Source: a virus. From it: a stretch of DNA of 64,000 bases. Below are positions 2,321 through 12,469 of the stretch, one piece after another. The position numbers and the translations under genes were made by a program. Location of the stretch: positions 1-64,000 of IMG/VR virus record IMGVR_UViG_3300036668_000173. One strand, written 5' to 3'. Every line of letters begins with the position of its first letter. Positions within the stretch are counted from its first letter, which is position 1. The notes beneath the pieces were generated by a model. The model made no database searches and was not told the DNA's origin. It worked only from the letters and a program-made list of their open reading frames with translations.

Positions 2321-4651
2321 ATGTCTATTAAAAACAATTTTCCAAACACACGCCCAACGCTTCTAGTTGACTTTAGAAACTCAGAAACAGTAGACCCGCG
2401 TATCGTAACCGCACGAGCCTCTACAGCGACATTTACAGACAAGTTCGGTGTTATCCAGACAGCGTTAAGCAACGTGCCTAGAATTACTTACGATGCAGTG
2501 ACAGGCGAGTGTGAAGGGTTGATGCGAGAAGCGCAGAGGACTAATCAACTGACGTATAGTCAAGATTTTAGTAATGCGGCTTGGACTAAAACAAATTTAA
2601 CTGTTGAAAGCAATGTTATTCTTGCTCCCGATGGAACACTTACTGCGGATAAGTTAATTGCAGGCGCTACAACAACGGCACATTGTGTTGAAAGACTCAT
2701 TGGTTATGCACTTAACACCTACACGGAGTCTGTTTACGCACAAGCTGGAGAAAATAGATTTATACAACTTGGTATAGCCTTCTATGCTCAAAACGCGTCT
2801 GATTGGTCTAATTTTGATTTAATAAACGGTACTGTTCAATCATTTGGTTCAGCAATAGGTAAAATCACAAACATAGGTAACGGCTGGTTTAGATGCGAAA
2901 CGATAAAAAATACGAATGCTGGCGCAGGACAAACATATATAATTATAGCCACATCGCTAAGTAGCTCGTTTGCCCCAAGTTATTTAGGCGATGGAGTATC
3001 AGGCCTTTACATCTGGGGATCACAAACTGAATTAGGTGCATACGCATCATCTTACATTCCAACAGTGGCATCACAAGTTACCCGCGCGGTAGACGCTTTT
3101 ACTCTCTCAGGCTCAAACTTTACCCAATGGTATAACCAATCGGGTCAAGGCACACTTGTAGCAGACGTAGACACACCCCAAGCGGGCATCATTGTCACAG
3201 CGGGTACTGCTAACCTACGCGCTCCTGTTATCGCTGACCGTTCTTACGGCTTACCTTTTTACCCAACGGCTACCACTTCACTAACTTTAGGTGTCGGTAC
3301 ACATAAAAAACTAAGCTACTACCCTGCCGATGTTGAGTACAGAAACCTGATCACACTTGTTGATGCGCCGTCTAATGCTTTCGTGATGACCGTGTTTATC
3401 TCAGCTAATGGTGGCACATTCCAATGGCCTAACCGTGCGGGTACAAGAGATGGTGTAATTAATTGGGGTGATGGTACTAGTGAAACTAGTGTTGGTAATT
3501 TGACTGCTAAGACTTATGCGCTTGCGGGCTATTACGATATCAGTGTAACGGGTACATACACAGCACCATTCTTTAATAATGTAGGGGATAGACTCAAGTG
3601 CGTGGATGTTAGGCAATGGGGTTCAGTGACGGGCATGACTACTTGGAATGCATCGTTTATGGGTTGTAATAATTTAGTTGGGACAGCTACTGACGCACCT
3701 GTTTTAATTGGCGCTTTATCCAGTATGTTTGAAGGTTGTAAAGTATTTAACGGTGCTATTGGTAACTGGAACACAAGTGCAGTTACTGCTATGAATAGTA
3801 TGTTCCGCGATGCAACAGTATTTAACCAAAACATCGGCGCTTGGAATACGAGTGCAGTTACTAATATGGCTAGTATGTTCCAAAGCGCAACAGCGTTTAA
3901 CCAAGACATCGGTTCGTGGAACACAAGTGCGGTTACTAATATGTCACAAATGTTCTATAGTGCATCAGCATTTAACCAAAACATTGGTTCTTGGAACACA
4001 GGTGCAGTTACTAATATGGTTGCTATGTTCTACAACATACCAGCATTTAACCAAGACATAGGTTCTTGGAACACAGGTGCAGTTACTAATATGGCTAGTA
4101 TGTTCCAAAGTGCGCCAGCATTTAACCAAAACATAGGCGCATGGAACACAGGCGCAGTTACTAATATGTTTCAAATGTTCTACGCCGCAACAGCATTTAA
4201 CCAAGACATTGGTTCTTGGAACACAGGTGCAGTTACTACTATGGCTAATATGTTCTTTAGTGCATCAGCATTTAACAACGGTGGTAGCGCAAGCATAAAT
4301 AACTGGAACACAAGTGCAGTTACTACTATGTCACAAATGTTCTATAGTGCATCGGCATTTAACCAAAACATTGGTTCTTGGAACACAGGTGCAGTTACTA
4401 ATATGGTTGCTATGTTCTACAACATACCAGCATTTAACCAAGACATAGGTTCTTGGAACACAGGTGCAGTTACTAATATGGCTAGTATGTTCCAAAGTGC
4501 GCCAGCATTTAACCAAGACTTATCTGTTTGGGTTACGGGTCTAACAGCACAGCCAACCAACTTCTCTTTGAGCGCAAACGCTACATTCGCTAACAATGCT
4601 AACGGGCTGAAGCCATACCTGTCGGGTGGCGTAACTCAAATCAACACATAA
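2321..4651 (+). CDS. Tail-fibre/adhesin-like protein with DUF285 (BspA-like) repeats
   Basis: 776 residues. The N-terminal portion (about 1-70, with [10 protein letters not shown] and [10 protein letters not shown]) is a module also present as a truncated remnant at 5581-5763, so it is probably a fibre-attachment module. The middle is a beta-rich segment of unknown fold. From about residue 468 there are eleven tandem 25-residue repeats with the pattern [18 protein letters not shown], which matches the DUF285/BspA leucine-rich-repeat surface-protein family known from bacterial adhesins. One repeat carries a four-residue insertion (GGSASI region). The gene lies 14 bases after the preceding fibre gene and 10 before the next, so they look co-expressed. 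Likely a receptor-binding or decoration fibre; the target is unknown. Confidence 0.7.
3722..4541 (+). repeat. Tandem 75-base (25-residue) repeats, eleven units, with a 189-base perfect-type duplication
   Basis: Each unit encodes a variant of MF-x-A-FNQ-IG-WNT-AVTNM. Within the array, bases 3941-4129 and 4328-4516 are identical except for one base (GCATCA versus GCATCG). The offset is 387 bases, equal to five units plus the four-codon insertion. This indicates recent internal expansion by recombination. Confidence 0.93.
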
Positions 4652-4661
4652 GGAAAACAAA

Positions 4662-4979
4662 ATGTCTGATTTTTACCTAAAATTTGTTGACGAAGAGCAA
4701 GCGCAAGAAGTTCTCTACACTAAAGTAGTAGACGAGTGGAGCGAGCCTGAAGACCCTGACGTTGAGCCTATCCCTTTGCGGTGGCATTATGTGCCGAACT
4801 ATGTAAACATTGACACGATTGGAGTTATTTACGAGCCACAGCCTGACACAGAGCCACCACCAGAGCCTGTAGCCTATGATGGTTGGTTTGTAAATGTGCG
4901 GGTAGTTAGCGAAGACCCAGAGCCTCTGTTACCGTTTAGTATCGACCCACAGCCGTATCCCATAAGAATTTGGGCTTAA
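4662..4979 (+). CDS. Small acidic protein following the fibre gene
   Basis: 105 residues, acidic and proline-rich (DPDVEPIP, PDTEPPPEP), starting 10 bases after the fibre gene behind an AAGGAAA ribosome site. The C-terminal half (from HYVPNYVNIDTIGVIYE onward) is clearly homologous to the remnant at 5764-5962, so this gene and the upstream fibre form a unit that was once duplicated. Position directly behind a fibre gene is typical of tail-fibre chaperones or assembly factors, but there is no recognisable family motif. Function unknown. Confidence 0.65.
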   Translation: MSDFYLKFVDEEQAQEVLYTKVVDEWSEPEDPDVEPIPLRWHYVPNYVNIDTIGVIYEPQPDTEPPPEPVAYDGWFVNVRVVSEDPEPLLPFSIDPQPYPIRIWA

Positions 4980-5354: not shown

Positions 5355-5584
5355 CACTCTCAATCGACAAACAAGCACACTTCTTTAGCGGTCTAGCCTT
5401 ATGCCTAGCTGTAGCTCTATTCTTTGGTGCATACGCTGGATTAGCTGTGGCTGTACTAGCGGGTCTTGGCAAAGAGGTATACGACAACTATGGGCGTGGT
5501 GCACCTGACATTTACGATGCTGTAGCAACGGCAGTTGGCGGTGCGCTTGGCTTTGTACTAATAATGATTGCGGAGGCTCTATGA
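5351..5584 (+). CDS. Small two-helix membrane protein
   Basis: 77 residues with two hydrophobic helices (about 12-37 and 58-76) separated by a short loop containing KEVYDNYGRGAPDIYDA. This arrangement, with H-F-G near the N-terminus and D-x-x-D before the second helix, resembles small uncharacterised membrane proteins of tailed phages. ATGA overlaps couple it to both neighbours. A role in lysis or membrane modification is possible since the lysis cassette follows, but nothing in the sequence proves it. Confidence 0.6.
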   Translation: MTLSIDKQAHFFSGLALCLAVALFFGAYAGLAVAVLAGLGKEVYDNYGRGAPDIYDAVATAVGGALGFVLIMIAEAL

Positions 5585-5962
5585 GCATTAAAGACAATTT
5601 TCCAAATTCGCGTCCTACGCTTCTAGTTGATTTTCGTAACAGAGAAACAGTAGACCCGCGTATCGTAACCGCACGAGCCTCTACAGCGACCTATACAGAC
5701 AAGTTCGGTGTGATGCAAACAGCGTTAAGCAACGTGCCACGGATTACTTACGATGCGGTAGCATTATGTGCCTGATTATGTGAACATTGATACAATTGGA
5801 GTTATTTACGAAGAGCAAGAAATTGTAGACCCTGAGAACCCACCTGAGCCTATTGTAAAAGATGGGTGGCACGTCAATGTTCATGTAGTCGGTTCAGAAG
5901 ACGTCACGGCACTTGAACCCTATTCAATATTGCCAGAAAATCCCCGCAGAGTCTGGGGATAA
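5581..5962 (+). pseudogene. Decayed second copy of the fibre/small-protein module
   Basis: 5581-5763 encodes a close copy of the first 60 or so residues of the fibre at 2321 ([18 protein letters not shown] and so on). At about 5759-5772 it jumps directly into a copy of the C-terminal half of the small acidic protein at 4662 (VPDYVNIDTIGVIYE to the end at 5962). Both parents contain GCGGT at the joint (compare 4778 onward), so a short-homology deletion removed about 2.4 kb of fibre. The two halves are in different frames, so the first part stops at 5775. An ORF-like GTG at 5768 is a by-product, not a real start. Confidence 0.8.
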
Positions 5963-5965
5963 ATA
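5958..5965 (+). promoter_or_regulatory. Possible late promoter (GATAAATA) for the lysis cassette
   Basis: GATAAATA, seven of eight matches to the T4 late consensus, overlapping the end of the remnant and 31 bases before the first gene of the lysis run. Lysis genes are expected to be late, which supports it weakly. Confidence 0.35.
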
Positions 5966-5996
5966 TTACTACTATAAACTATAAAGGAATAACAGC

Positions 5997-6224
5997 ATGA
6001 ACGATACAACTATACTCATCACCCCAGGACAGGTTCAACGTCATTATGATGCCGCCATGGACTCGGTCAATCTAATCAATGCTGGTCAACCCGTGGGCAT
6101 GACTGATGAAGACTGGGCAGATACAGTCAAGCGTAATGTGGATCATTTAGAGGTCATGTTAGCAAAAGACTTTTGGACAGAAGATCAAGATTTAACTCCA
6201 CTTGAAGGGGCAGTAGAACAATAA
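5997..6224 (+). CDS. Conserved-looking small protein ahead of lysis genes
   Basis: 75 residues, acidic, predicted soluble, behind AAAGGAATAAC. The segment MTDEDWADTVKRNVDHLEVML looks like a structured amphipathic helix pair; no known domain is recognised. The stop overlaps the start of the holin-like gene (TAATGA), placing it in the lysis operon. Function unknown. Confidence 0.65.
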   Translation: MNDTTILITPGQVQRHYDAAMDSVNLINAGQPVGMTDEDWADTVKRNVDHLEVMLAKDFWTEDQDLTPLEGAVEQ

Positions 6225-6433
6225 TGAAATTAGATACACGTTGGTCAGAAATCCTAAAGCGAGCATGGTCAATACGATTCATTGTGATCGCAGGTATTCT
6301 TACTGCCGCAGAGGTAGTATTGCCAATGTTCGAGAATGACATACCAAGAAATGTATTTGCCTTCCTTTCGCTAGGAGCAGTGGCAGGTGCATTTATTTCT
6401 AGACTCGTGGCTCAACAGGATCTACCCGAATAA
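6224..6433 (+). CDS. Putative holin (small membrane protein)
   Basis: 69 residues with two hydrophobic stretches, about 17-33 (RFIVIAGILTAAEVVLP) and 44-62 (VFAFLSLGAVAGAFIS), separated by a polar turn. Size, topology, and position immediately upstream of a lysozyme with overlapping start/stop codons fit a class II holin, or the small holin-like family common in phages of Betaproteobacteria. It would permeabilise or depolarise the inner membrane and release or activate the endolysin. The call rests on context and topology, not on a diagnostic motif. Confidence 0.65.
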   Translation: MKLDTRWSEILKRAWSIRFIVIAGILTAAEVVLPMFENDIPRNVFAFLSLGAVAGAFISRLVAQQDLPE

Positions 6434-6912
6434 TGATAAAACCACAAAATAAGACTCGCGCAGGAATTGCAACTCTGGTACTGAGTGCATCGGCTCTGGT
6501 CGGTTTGGCAGTACACGAAGGATATCAGGAAAGGGCATACATACCAGTCCCAGGGGATGTACCAACAATCGGATTTGGTACCACTCAAGGTGTCAAGCTC
6601 GGTGATCGTACAAACCCTATCATTGCCCTACAAAGAAAACTAGATGACATCAAAAACTTTGAAGGTGCTCTAAAACAATGTGTCACGGTTCCACTTCATC
6701 AATATGAGTATGATGCATTTATTTCACTATCATATAATATTGGCTCCTCGGCATTTTGTCGTTCTACCTTAGTTCGTAAACTAAATGCAGGTGACTATGA
6801 CGGTGCCTGTAAAGAAATTCTACGATGGGATAAGTTCAAGGGTGCACCACTTCGTGGTCTGACGATTCGTCGTGAAGCCGAATATCAACAATGTATCGGG
6901 AAGAAGCAATAA
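6433..6912 (+). CDS. Endolysin, phage lysozyme (GH24) with signal-anchor-like N-terminus
   Basis: 159 residues. Residues 12-27 form a weakly hydrophobic Ala/Ser/Gly-rich segment after a basic N-terminus, as in SAR endolysins exported by the Sec system and released on membrane depolarisation. The lysozyme core follows: catalytic Glu29 in HEGY, then PGDVPTIGFGTT with the Thr of the catalytic triad at about 51, and a C-terminal helix bundle with LSYNIGSSAFCRSTLVRKL. The acidic residue of the E-D/C-T triad is not at the usual place (IPVPGD instead of a D/C just after AY). The product cleaves peptidoglycan between MurNAc and GlcNAc. The type resembles lysozymes of P2/Mu-like and Burkholderiales phages more than T4 gpe, suggesting an exchanged lysis cassette. 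Confidence 0.9.
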   Translation: MIKPQNKTRAGIATLVLSASALVGLAVHEGYQERAYIPVPGDVPTIGFGTTQGVKLGDRTNPIIALQRKLDDIKNFEGALKQCVTVPLHQYEYDAFISLSYNIGSSAFCRSTLVRKLNAGDYDGACKEILRWDKFKGAPLRGLTIRREAEYQQCIGKKQ

Positions 6913-10026: not shown

Positions 10027-10452
10027 ATGAATGACGATGACGATGACGAAAAGTATTCTACCGAGGATCAGACTAATGATGACTTTGTTTTTTCGCGGGA
10101 CAAGTATTATAAATTAGCCGAAAGTGGTCAAGAGGCAATTGATTTGATGTTGAATCTTGCCCGTGAATCCGAGGCACCCAGAGCCTTTGAGGTTCTTGCG
10201 ACACTGATAAAAAGTAATGCCGAAATTGTAGATAGGCTAATGGATCTACAAAAAAAGAAAAAGGATATTCTAAAAAAAGAAACCACTAGCATAGCCACGG
10301 TTCCTAAAATAGAGAACGCTCCTTCGGGCAGTGGTGGCATAACCAATAACAATTTGTTTGTAGGTTCTACTCAAGAACTATCTAAGATGATAGAAGAAAG
10401 GAAAGAGGCTTTAAGAAACAAACAAAATACAATAGAAGAAGATGAAGACTGA
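10027..10452 (+). CDS. 16: Terminase small subunit Gp16-like
   Basis: 141 residues, charged, with an acidic N-terminus and a central helical region (QEAIDLMLNLARESEAPRAFEVLATLIKSNAEIVDRLMDLQKKKKDI) characteristic of cyanophage-type gp16, followed by a conserved-looking NNNLFVGSTQEL near the C-terminus. It recognises DNA for packaging and regulates Gp17. It overlaps the start of the large subunit by 11 bases. Confidence 0.85.
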   Translation: MNDDDDDEKYSTEDQTNDDFVFSRDKYYKLAESGQEAIDLMLNLARESEAPRAFEVLATLIKSNAEIVDRLMDLQKKKKDILKKETTSIATVPKIENAPSGSGGITNNNLFVGSTQELSKMIEERKEALRNKQNTIEEDED

Positions 10453-12469
10453 ATTAAATAATTACTTTGGTAATGCAAACTTAAAGGGAGCCAATGTAAC
10501 AATTGATTGGACTCCTGAGATGGTGTCCGAATGGATAAAATGTAAAAACGATCCTATGTATTTTGGTAGAAACTATATCAAAATTATTAGTGTCGACGGT
10601 GGCTTAGTTACAATTGATCCGTATGACTATCAGGAAGAGATCGTTCGTAAATTTGAAAAGTCCAGAAAACTTGTTGTCGTAGCATCTAGGCAGTGTGGCA
10701 AAACGACTACTGCGACTCTTATTGTCCTTCATTATATACTTTTCAATTCATACAAGCGCGTAGCTCTGTTAGCAAATAAACGTGATTCGGCAATGGACAT
10801 TTTAGATCGAATTCAAATTGCATTCGAAGGCTTACCCTATTGGTTACAACAAGGTGTGGTGAGTTGGAATAAACAATCTGTGGAGTTGGAGAACGGATCT
10901 CGAGTCATCGCGGCGGCAACATCATCAAGTGCAATTCGAGGAAAAAGTATAAACCTTTTATATCTCGACGAAACCGCATTTATCGATAATTGGAACGAGT
11001 TCTCTGCTTCGGTTCTGCCTACTATTTCTTCGGGCAAGACCACAAAACTGTTGTACACTTCTACCCCTAACGGATTAAATCACTTCTATAAAACCGTGAT
11101 GGGAGCAAAAGATAAATCTAACGGGTTTGAGTTAGTCGAGGTGCCTTGGTATAAAGTTCCTGGGAGGGACGAGGCATGGAAAAAAACCACTATGGGCGAC
11201 ATCGATAACGACGCTCAGAAATTTGAACAAGAATATTCTTGTGTAACGGGTGATACAATTGTAACTGTTAAAGATAAATCGACTGGTGAAATTAAAAATA
11301 TAACTATTGAAGAGTTGTATGTTAATAATTATGAAATTTTAACACATGAAGGATTTAAACCGTTTGATGGAATTAAACGGAGTCTATCTAATTCTCTAGT
11401 GTTTATCGAAACAACATCAGGGAAAAAATTAAAATGCACAAGTGACCATTTAATTTGCATTGGCAACGAATACGTTACGGCTGATAGTTTAGCTGTTAGC
11501 GACACCATACTCACTAAAGATGGTGTAGAAAGTATAAAAATTAAAAAATGTGTCAATGAAAAACAATATGTATATGATGTACTAGAAGTTAAAGATACTA
11601 ATTCGTATTATACCAATGACATAATAAGTCACAACTGTGAGTTTCAAGGCTCTTCGGGTACCCTTATCTCTGGATCAAAACTAAAAGAACTCGTGCCCCT
11701 TGATCCTATTGTATCTAAAGATAGCATGTCGATGTATGTGAAATACGAAAAAGAACATCAGTATGTGTGTATCTGTGACGTGTCACGTGGAAAGGGTCTC
11801 GACTACTCGGCATTTTCTATCATAGACATTACCCAAATGCCATACAAGCAAGTTCTCACGTTCAAAGATAATATGATAACCCCTACCGAGTATGCAGAAA
11901 CTATTTTTCGTACTTGCAAATTGTATGGTGAATGTGTTGTGTTAGTAGAGATCAACGATATTGGTCAACAAGTATCAGACACTTTACACGACACATATGA
12001 ATACGAAAATATTCTATATACCGAAAGCGCAGGTCGATCAGGAAAACGTATATCAAGTGGGTTTGGGAAAGGCGCAGACTCTGGCATAAGAACAACCAAA
12101 ACGGTTAAGGCGGTTGGTTGTAACATGTTGAAGTTAATGATCGAACAAAATCAATTGATCGTAAACGACATACAAACAATCGAAGAGTTATCCAGATTTT
12201 CACGTAAAGGACTTTCTTTCGAAGCCGAGTCGGGTTGCAATGATGACCTTGTTATGACACTAGTATTATTTGGGTGGTTGTCGGATCAACAATACTTTAA
12301 AGACCTAACCAATATCAACACCTTGGCGAACCTTCGAGAAAAGTCCGAGGATGATTTGATGAGCGAGTTAACTCCGTTTGGTGTTTTGGATGATGGGCTT
12401 AAAGAAGAAGTGATATATGAGGGTCGTGAAATGTGGACGGTGGTACCTTCTTCGGGTGAATTGTACTGA
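10442..12469 (+). CDS. 17: Terminase large subunit Gp17 (packaging ATPase-nuclease) containing an intein
   Basis: 675 residues as translated, 543 after removal of the intein at residues 267-398. N-terminal ATPase: Walker A SRQCGKTT (82-89), Walker B LLYLDE (172-177) and coupling motif LYTSTPNG. C-terminal RNase H-like nuclease: acidic residues in the VCICDVSRGKGLDYSAF segment, VLVEINDIG, and a final acidic patch CNDDLV. It translocates DNA into the prohead and cuts headful lengths. The intein interrupts the extein between S266 and C399, just after the ATPase domain at the conserved F-QEYS/CEF-G junction, so packaging depends on protein splicing. Confidence 0.95.
   Translation: MKTELNNYFGNANLKGANVTIDWTPEMVSEWIKCKNDPMYFGRNYIKIISVDGGLVTIDPYDYQEEIVRKFEKSRKLVVVASRQCGKTTTATLIVLHYILFNSYKRVALLANKRDSAMDILDRIQIAFEGLPYWLQQGVVSWNKQSVELENGSRVIAAATSSSAIRGKSINLLYLDETAFIDNWNEFSASVLPTISSGKTTKLLYTSTPNGLNHFYKTVMGAKDKSNGFELVEVPWYKVPGRDEAWKKTTMGDIDNDAQKFEQEYSCVTGDTIVTVKDKSTGEIKNITIEELYVNNYEILTHEGFKPFDGIKRSLSNSLVFIETTSGKKLKCTSDHLICIGNEYVTADSLAVSDTILTKDGVESIKIKKCVNEKQYVYDVLEVKDTNSYYTNDIISHNCEFQGSSGTLISGSKLKELVPLDPIVSKDSMSMYVKYEKEHQYVCICDVSRGKGLDYSAFSIIDITQMPYKQVLTFKDNMITPTEYAETIFRTCKLYGECVVLVEINDIGQQVSDTLHDTYEYENILYTESAGRSGKRISSGFGKGADSGIRTTKTVKAVGCNMLKLMIEQNQLIVNDIQTIEELSRFSRKGLSFEAESGCNDDLVMTLVLFGWLSDQQYFKDLTNINTLANLREKSEDDLMSELTPFGVLDDGLKEEVIYEGREMWTVVPSSGELY
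11240..11635 (+). other. Mini-intein in the terminase large subunit
   Basis: 132 codons. Splicing motifs seen: block A begins with Cys1 (CVTGDTIV), block B contains TSDH in KCTSDHLICI, block F VYDVLEVKDTNSYYTND, and block G ends ISHN followed by Cys of the C-extein, the standard Cys...His-Asn/Cys set. No LAGLIDADG or HNH endonuclease domain fits in the length, so this is a minimal splicing element. Codon use is more AT-rich than the surrounding gene (many AAT, ATT, AAA), consistent with separate origin. Confidence 0.93.

What the first reader, a model, noticed from the sequence alone, without database searches (positions are those of the whole stretch)
11240..11635. Minimal 132-residue intein in the terminase large subunit
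Complete splicing blocks (Cys1, TSDH, C-terminal His-Asn before Cys) but no endonuclease. It sits at the end of the ATPase domain, where inserting it inactivates packaging until it is spliced out. Very small and AT-rich compared with the host gene.
Basis: partly seen in the sequence, partly recalled or inferred. Interest (0 to 1): 0.6.

Follow-up and report, generated by a model that had tools for sequence, protein, structure and literature searches.

The report
Endonuclease-free intein in phage terminase
A T4-like environmental phage has a 132-residue self-splicing protein insert in its DNA-packaging motor; this is an ordinary kind of intein, but it is the unbroken form of a family that is mostly split in two around an endonuclease gene, and it has moved between phages independently of the gene it sits in.

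Summary
An in-frame 132-residue insert (11240-11635) interrupts the gp17-like TerL ORF (10442-12469). It has Cys1, TSDH, a terminal His-Asn and Cys+1, and no endonuclease. NCBIfam intein_Nterm scores above its cut-off, and AlphaFold gives a HINT fold (pLDDT 96) whose best PDB match is the VidaL intein. Removing it leaves a 543-residue TerL. The site is empty in 75 of 78 TerL relatives checked, so the insert is not part of the terminase.

Of 75 distinct site-c inteins in viral contigs, 61 are split after about residue 28-36, typically around an endonuclease-like gene, and 11 are contiguous. The window intein is 89% identical in DNA to its nearest copy, the flanking exteins 72-79%, so it moved independently of its host gene. 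Two other pairs show the same pattern, with the endonuclease cassette missing in one member. This fits a homing cycle ending in an endonuclease-free contiguous intein. Splicing itself and the direction of change in this lineage are untested. New member of a known kind.

The parts
10442..12469 (+). TerL (T4 gp17-like) precursor ORF, 675 aa
   Evidence: flanked by TerS (gp16) at 10027-10452 and tail sheath (gp18) from 12552
10442..11239 (+). N-extein (266 aa, ATPase domain), ends QEYS
11240..11635 (+). contiguous 132-aa intein, no endonuclease
11240..11242 (+). Cys1 nucleophile (block A, CVTGDTIV)
11315..11323 (+). residues 26-28 (LYV): the point where split relatives are broken; three consecutive substitutions plus a 2-residue indel against L002
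11438..11449 (+). block B TSDH
11630..11635 (+). penultimate His and terminal Asn
11636..12469 (+). C-extein (277 aa, nuclease domain), begins Cys+1-Glu-Phe; coordinates include the stop codon

Best explanation
It is a contiguous class-1 mini-intein. After translation of the 675-residue precursor, Cys1, the TSDH His, His131/Asn132 and Cys+1 are expected to carry out N-S acyl shift, transesterification to Cys+1, Asn cyclisation and S-N shift, releasing the intein and leaving a 543-residue TerL (inferred from motifs, fold and family chemistry; not shown). It is homologous to the atypically split TerL inteins (Cat/AceL/GOS type) and sits at their site, but in one unbroken piece with no endonuclease. 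It spreads between TerL genes independently of the exteins (shown by divergence). It most likely represents the endonuclease-free phase of a homing cycle at this site. Whether this lineage was once split is inferred, not shown.
For: Open reading frame and motifs. Intein HMMs. Homology to CatC, E 3.8e-11, 35 of 100 aligned residues identical. Cat constructs carry EFE|...|CE exteins that match this site in L011. HINT fold at pLDDT 96.1, best PDB match the VidaL intein. Site empty in 75 of 78 TerL relatives; the window sits in a 7-row TerL clade (support 99) with five empty-site members. Purifying selection on the intein against L002: dN 0.047, dS 0.42, ratio 0.11. Horizontal movement: synonymous differences are 28 of 87 sites in the intein against about 265 of 371 in the exteins, Fisher p 2e-11, with drops in identity at both splice junctions. 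Split versus contiguous counts 61 to 11. Two other pairs show the same decoupling together with presence or absence of the endonuclease cassette.
Against: No splicing data. The Pfam Intein_splicing and TIGR01443 scores are below their curated cut-offs. Extein position -1 is Ser, where split relatives mostly have Glu, so extein preference may differ. The window's place in the intein tree is unresolved, so a never-split ancestry is not excluded. The synonymous test uses one intein pair and an AT-rich element, whose saturation level is somewhat lower than that of the exteins.
Confidence: 0.9

Rival explanations
1. Re-fused split intein: this lineage was once split around an endonuclease gene, and the endonuclease cassette was deleted, restoring one frame.
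For: Most site-c relatives are split. L133 is contiguous and nested in a clade with 22 split members; its sister L156 has 92% (IntN) and 97% (IntC) identical residues and a 578-nt gap holding a GIY-YIG-like ORF. L224 lacks the HNH-like cassette that L233 has, and the cassette in L233 is flanked by ATATTATAA direct repeats. In window versus L002, three substitutions and the only indel fall exactly at the split point.
Against: No split intein is a close sister of the window and L002 copies. The variable spot could simply be a permissive loop.
Confidence: 0.5
2. Ancestral contiguous form: this lineage was never split, and the split lineages arose by endonuclease insertion into inteins like this one.
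For: Contiguous mini-inteins exist at another TerL site (VmeM-32, SRB7757), and contiguous forms are scattered through the tree.
Against: Split forms predominate at this site, and presence/absence of the cassette between near-identical inteins is seen in other lineages.
Confidence: 0.4
3. The insert is a decayed or non-splicing remnant.
For: No direct splicing evidence; small size.
Against: All nucleophiles are present; dN/dS is 0.11 in the intein; the ORF is intact; TerL is essential in T4-like phages (general knowledge).
Confidence: 0.04
4. Collaborative homing: a free-standing endonuclease elsewhere in the phage cuts empty TerL sites and carries the intein along. (Concerns how it moves, so it does not exclude the others.)
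For: L183, with nearly the same intein, has a 495-aa gene between gp13 and gp14 that is 42% identical to the ORF inside the split intein of L008, E 4e-58. Collaborative homing of phage introns is described (PMC10448857).
Against: No such gene was found in the window's own 87-kb record, which may be incomplete. The L183 protein hits no Pfam nuclease family. Another module (the lysis region) was also exchanged without an obvious endonuclease.
Confidence: 0.2

Closest known systems
AceL-TerL, GOS-TerL and consensus Cat atypically split inteins (review PMC11766414; Cat structure 6dsl)
   Same: Same host gene; EFE|...|CE exteins as at this site; homologous C part (E 3.8e-11); Cys1/Cys+1 in AceL and Cat; similar total length (25+104 for AceL)
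   Different: They are split, with IntN of 25-37 residues; the window intein is one chain with no break
VidaL intein (PDB 6vgv)
   Same: Best structural match, TM-score 0.83 on the query
   Different: 24% identity; known to me as an atypically split intein (from memory, not tested here)
TerL intein of Vibrio phage vB_VmeM-32 (KU160494)
   Same: Contiguous 142-aa TerL mini-intein; best hit in the phage collection, 38.5% identity, E 6e-19
   Different: Inserted at the Walker B motif (after residue 177 in window numbering), not between the domains
TerL inteins of Ackermannviridae, e.g. Klebsiella phage Magnus (annotated intein)
   Same: Small contiguous TerL intein
   Different: Inserted in Walker A (after residue 87); 159 aa; 31% identity

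Membership tests
Class-1 intein | Cys/Ser/Thr at position 1 in block A | tested here: met
   Cys1 11240-11242; TIGR01445 above cut-off
Class-1 intein | TxxH in block B | tested here: met
   TSDH at 11438-11449; this His is invariant in the 27-row alignment
Class-1 intein | C-terminal Asn, usually after His, and Cys/Ser/Thr at +1 | tested here: met
   HN|C at 11630-11638
Class-1 intein | HINT fold | tested here: met
   Predicted model, pLDDT 96.1; leading PDB matches are inteins
Class-1 intein | Uninterrupted homologues of the host protein lack the insert | tested here: met
   75 of 78 relatives are empty at the site
Class-1 intein | Demonstrated protein splicing | not testable with these tools
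   Needs expression
Atypically split TerL intein (AceL/GOS/Cat) | Sequence homology of the C part | tested here: met
   6dsl_B E 3.8e-11
Atypically split TerL intein (AceL/GOS/Cat) | Same insertion site in TerL | tested here: met
   Site c in the window and the split loci; Cat chains carry EFE and CE exteins
Atypically split TerL intein (AceL/GOS/Cat) | Break after about residue 25-37, two separate genes | tested here: not met
   Single uninterrupted 675-aa ORF, so it is not filed as a split intein
Homing (endonuclease-bearing) intein | Endonuclease inside or between the halves | tested here: not met
   132 aa of splicing domain only; no GIY-YIG, HNH_3 or LAGLIDADG_3 match in the 87-kb record

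The most novel reading that the evidence does not exclude
The window intein is the end product of a full homing cycle of an atypically split intein: a split, endonuclease-bearing intein invaded TerL, its endonuclease cassette was lost, and the two halves were rejoined into one working cis-splicing chain. The L156/L133 and L233/L224 pairs would show other steps of the same process.
Probability: 0.45. Interest if true: 0.6.

Novelty: new member of a known kind. Interest (0 to 1): 0.42.

Why it matters
Inteins in phage terminases are common, so the insert alone is ordinary. Two things add value. First, it gives a natural one-piece relative of the AceL/Cat split inteins used for protein labelling, so cis and trans versions of one family can be compared. 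Second, the site carries empty, split-with-nuclease, split-without-nuclease and contiguous states, with intein DNA far more similar than flanking DNA. That makes the origin and reversal of split inteins directly testable.

Tried and rejected
Conserved terminase segment: rejected, site empty in 75 of 78 relatives. Endonuclease elsewhere in the record: no match to GIY-YIG, HNH_3, LAGLIDADG_3 or the L183 gene; the record may be incomplete, and the L183 query had no positive control. Second intein in the record: none by PF14890. Relatives in prokaryote genomes: none. More copies of the L133-type junction: only the same contig, so L133 rests on one assembly. The intein tree does not place the window clade. 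Bachmann and Mootz 2015, the GOS-TerL paper, is not held. One alignment attempt failed on a frame error. The automated IntN search mis-assigned a few loci (L007, L014, L106, L112, L174, L222); these IntN calls were left out of or replaced in the tree.

Full report
Observation. The ORF at 10442-12469 encodes 675 residues without a stop. It matches T4-type TerL N-terminal (PF03237) and C-terminal (PF17289) domains at 80-271 and 446-621, and it lies in T4-like gene order: gp13, gp14, gp15, gp16 (TerS), TerL, gp18, gp19, gp20, gp22, gp23 homologues (T4 gene numbers are my assignment from the PHROG names). The stretch 11240-11635 is exactly 132 codons; without it the protein is 543 residues. It begins CVTGDTIV, contains TSDH, and ends IISHN followed by Cys. 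NCBIfam TIGR01445 scores above cut-off, while Pfam PF14890 and TIGR01443 are sub-threshold. The AlphaFold model is confident (pLDDT 96.1, pTM 0.87) and its leading PDB matches are inteins, first VidaL 6vgv. GC content is 29.5% against 40.0% in the exteins.

Not part of the terminase. Of 78 TerL loci from the viral collection in which both sides of the site could be read, 75 have the two extein parts directly joined; the three others are contigs that carry the near-identical intein. In the TerL tree the window and L002 sit in a clade of seven (support 99) with five empty-site members, L020-L024, 71-75% identical.

Which intein. The closest solved sequence is CatC of the consensus atypically split intein (E 3.8e-11). 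The Cat chains carry EFE before IntN and CE after IntC, as at this site in L011. The review PMC11766414 gives AceL-TerL as 25+104 residues and GOS-TerL as 37+115. TerL inteins occupy at least three sites: site a in Walker A (Kuja, Magnus), site b at Walker B (VmeM-32, SRB7757), and site c between the domains (window). They are different insertions, though the inteins are homologous.

Split and contiguous forms at site c. A search with a C-part profile and a DNA pattern found 144 site-c matches, 75 of them distinct. Sixty-one are split: IntN ends at a stop about 28-36 residues in, and IntC begins a new ORF. Where both halves were found there is usually an ORF between them, GIY-YIG-like, NUMOD3-bearing, HNH-like or of the L006/L008 type; apart from NUMOD3 in L011, these nuclease labels rest on my reading of the sequences, not on a family hit. 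Eleven are contiguous and three run off the contig. The contiguous forms are scattered over the tree: eight label changes in the best tree, at least three forced by strongly supported branches.

Mobility. Between the window and L002 the intein is 89.4% identical in DNA, the exteins 71.6% and 78.7%; synonymous differences are 0.32 per site in the intein and 0.77 and 0.66 in the exteins, with Fisher p 2e-11 on rounded site counts. Identity drops at both splice junctions. The same decoupling is seen in L133/L156 (intein 97%, exteins 77%) and L224/L233 (intein 98-99%, exteins 74-82%). So site-c inteins spread independently of their host genes. In both extra pairs one member lacks the cassette: L133 is contiguous where L156 has 578 nt between the halves, and L224 keeps two overlapping frames where L233 has a 567-nt gap. 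In L233 the sequence ATATTATAA lies at both ends of that cassette, and the L224 junction holds one copy, as expected for deletion between short direct repeats.

The window lineage. The only indel and three of eleven substitutions between the window and L002 inteins lie at residues 26-30, the point where relatives are split (hypergeometric p 0.008 for the substitutions alone). This is compatible with a healed break or with a tolerant loop. No close split sister was found, so direction is open. L183 (the same contig as L002) carries a free-standing gene between the gp13 and gp14 homologues that is 42% identical to the ORF inside L008's split intein; the window's 87-kb record has no match. This is a lead for collaborative homing, which PMC10448857 describes for phage introns, not evidence for it.

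Shown: the reading frame, motifs, predicted fold, homology, empty sites, and the excess similarity of the intein. Inferred: splicing, its chemistry, the effect on packaging, and past splitting. The expectation that an unspliced TerL is inactive rests on the insertion point and on general knowledge.

Noticed in passing
window 5754-6896: A lysis-region segment (includes a phage lysozyme at 6433-6912) is 89% identical to L183 overall (up to 97% in places), against a 70-74% background; a recent module exchange.
   Followed up: partly
L183 1956-3443: 495-aa gene between gp13 and gp14 homologues, 42% identical to the ORF inside the split TerL intein of L008; the window has no gene there (8067 and 8074 nearly abut). 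No Pfam hit.
   Followed up: partly
window 5581-5962 versus 2321-4651 and 4662-4979: A short ORF at 5581 repeats the start of the 776-aa repeat protein at 2321, and the ORF at 5768 resembles the end of the ORF at 4662; looks like a partial duplication of a tail-fibre-type module.
   Followed up: no
L007, L124-L126, L131, L132, L207, L222, L229: TerL genes with intein C-halves at two sites at once, Walker A and site c, each starting its own ORF.
   Followed up: partly
L008 and L010, downstream of site c: A further large intein-like insert with an endonuclease-like middle near the end of TerL, around HDD|C...N|CVTSLLW.
   Followed up: no
NC_041833.1 (Campylobacter phage vB_CcoM-IBB_35), locus L237: TerL region reported as intein plus intron with a homing endonuclease (PMC3322345); the match to residues 28-132 only suggests it may instead be a split intein.
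   Followed up: no
L115 and L128: Nearly identical TerL C-terminal parts but inteins from different clades at the same site, suggesting intein replacement.
   Followed up: no
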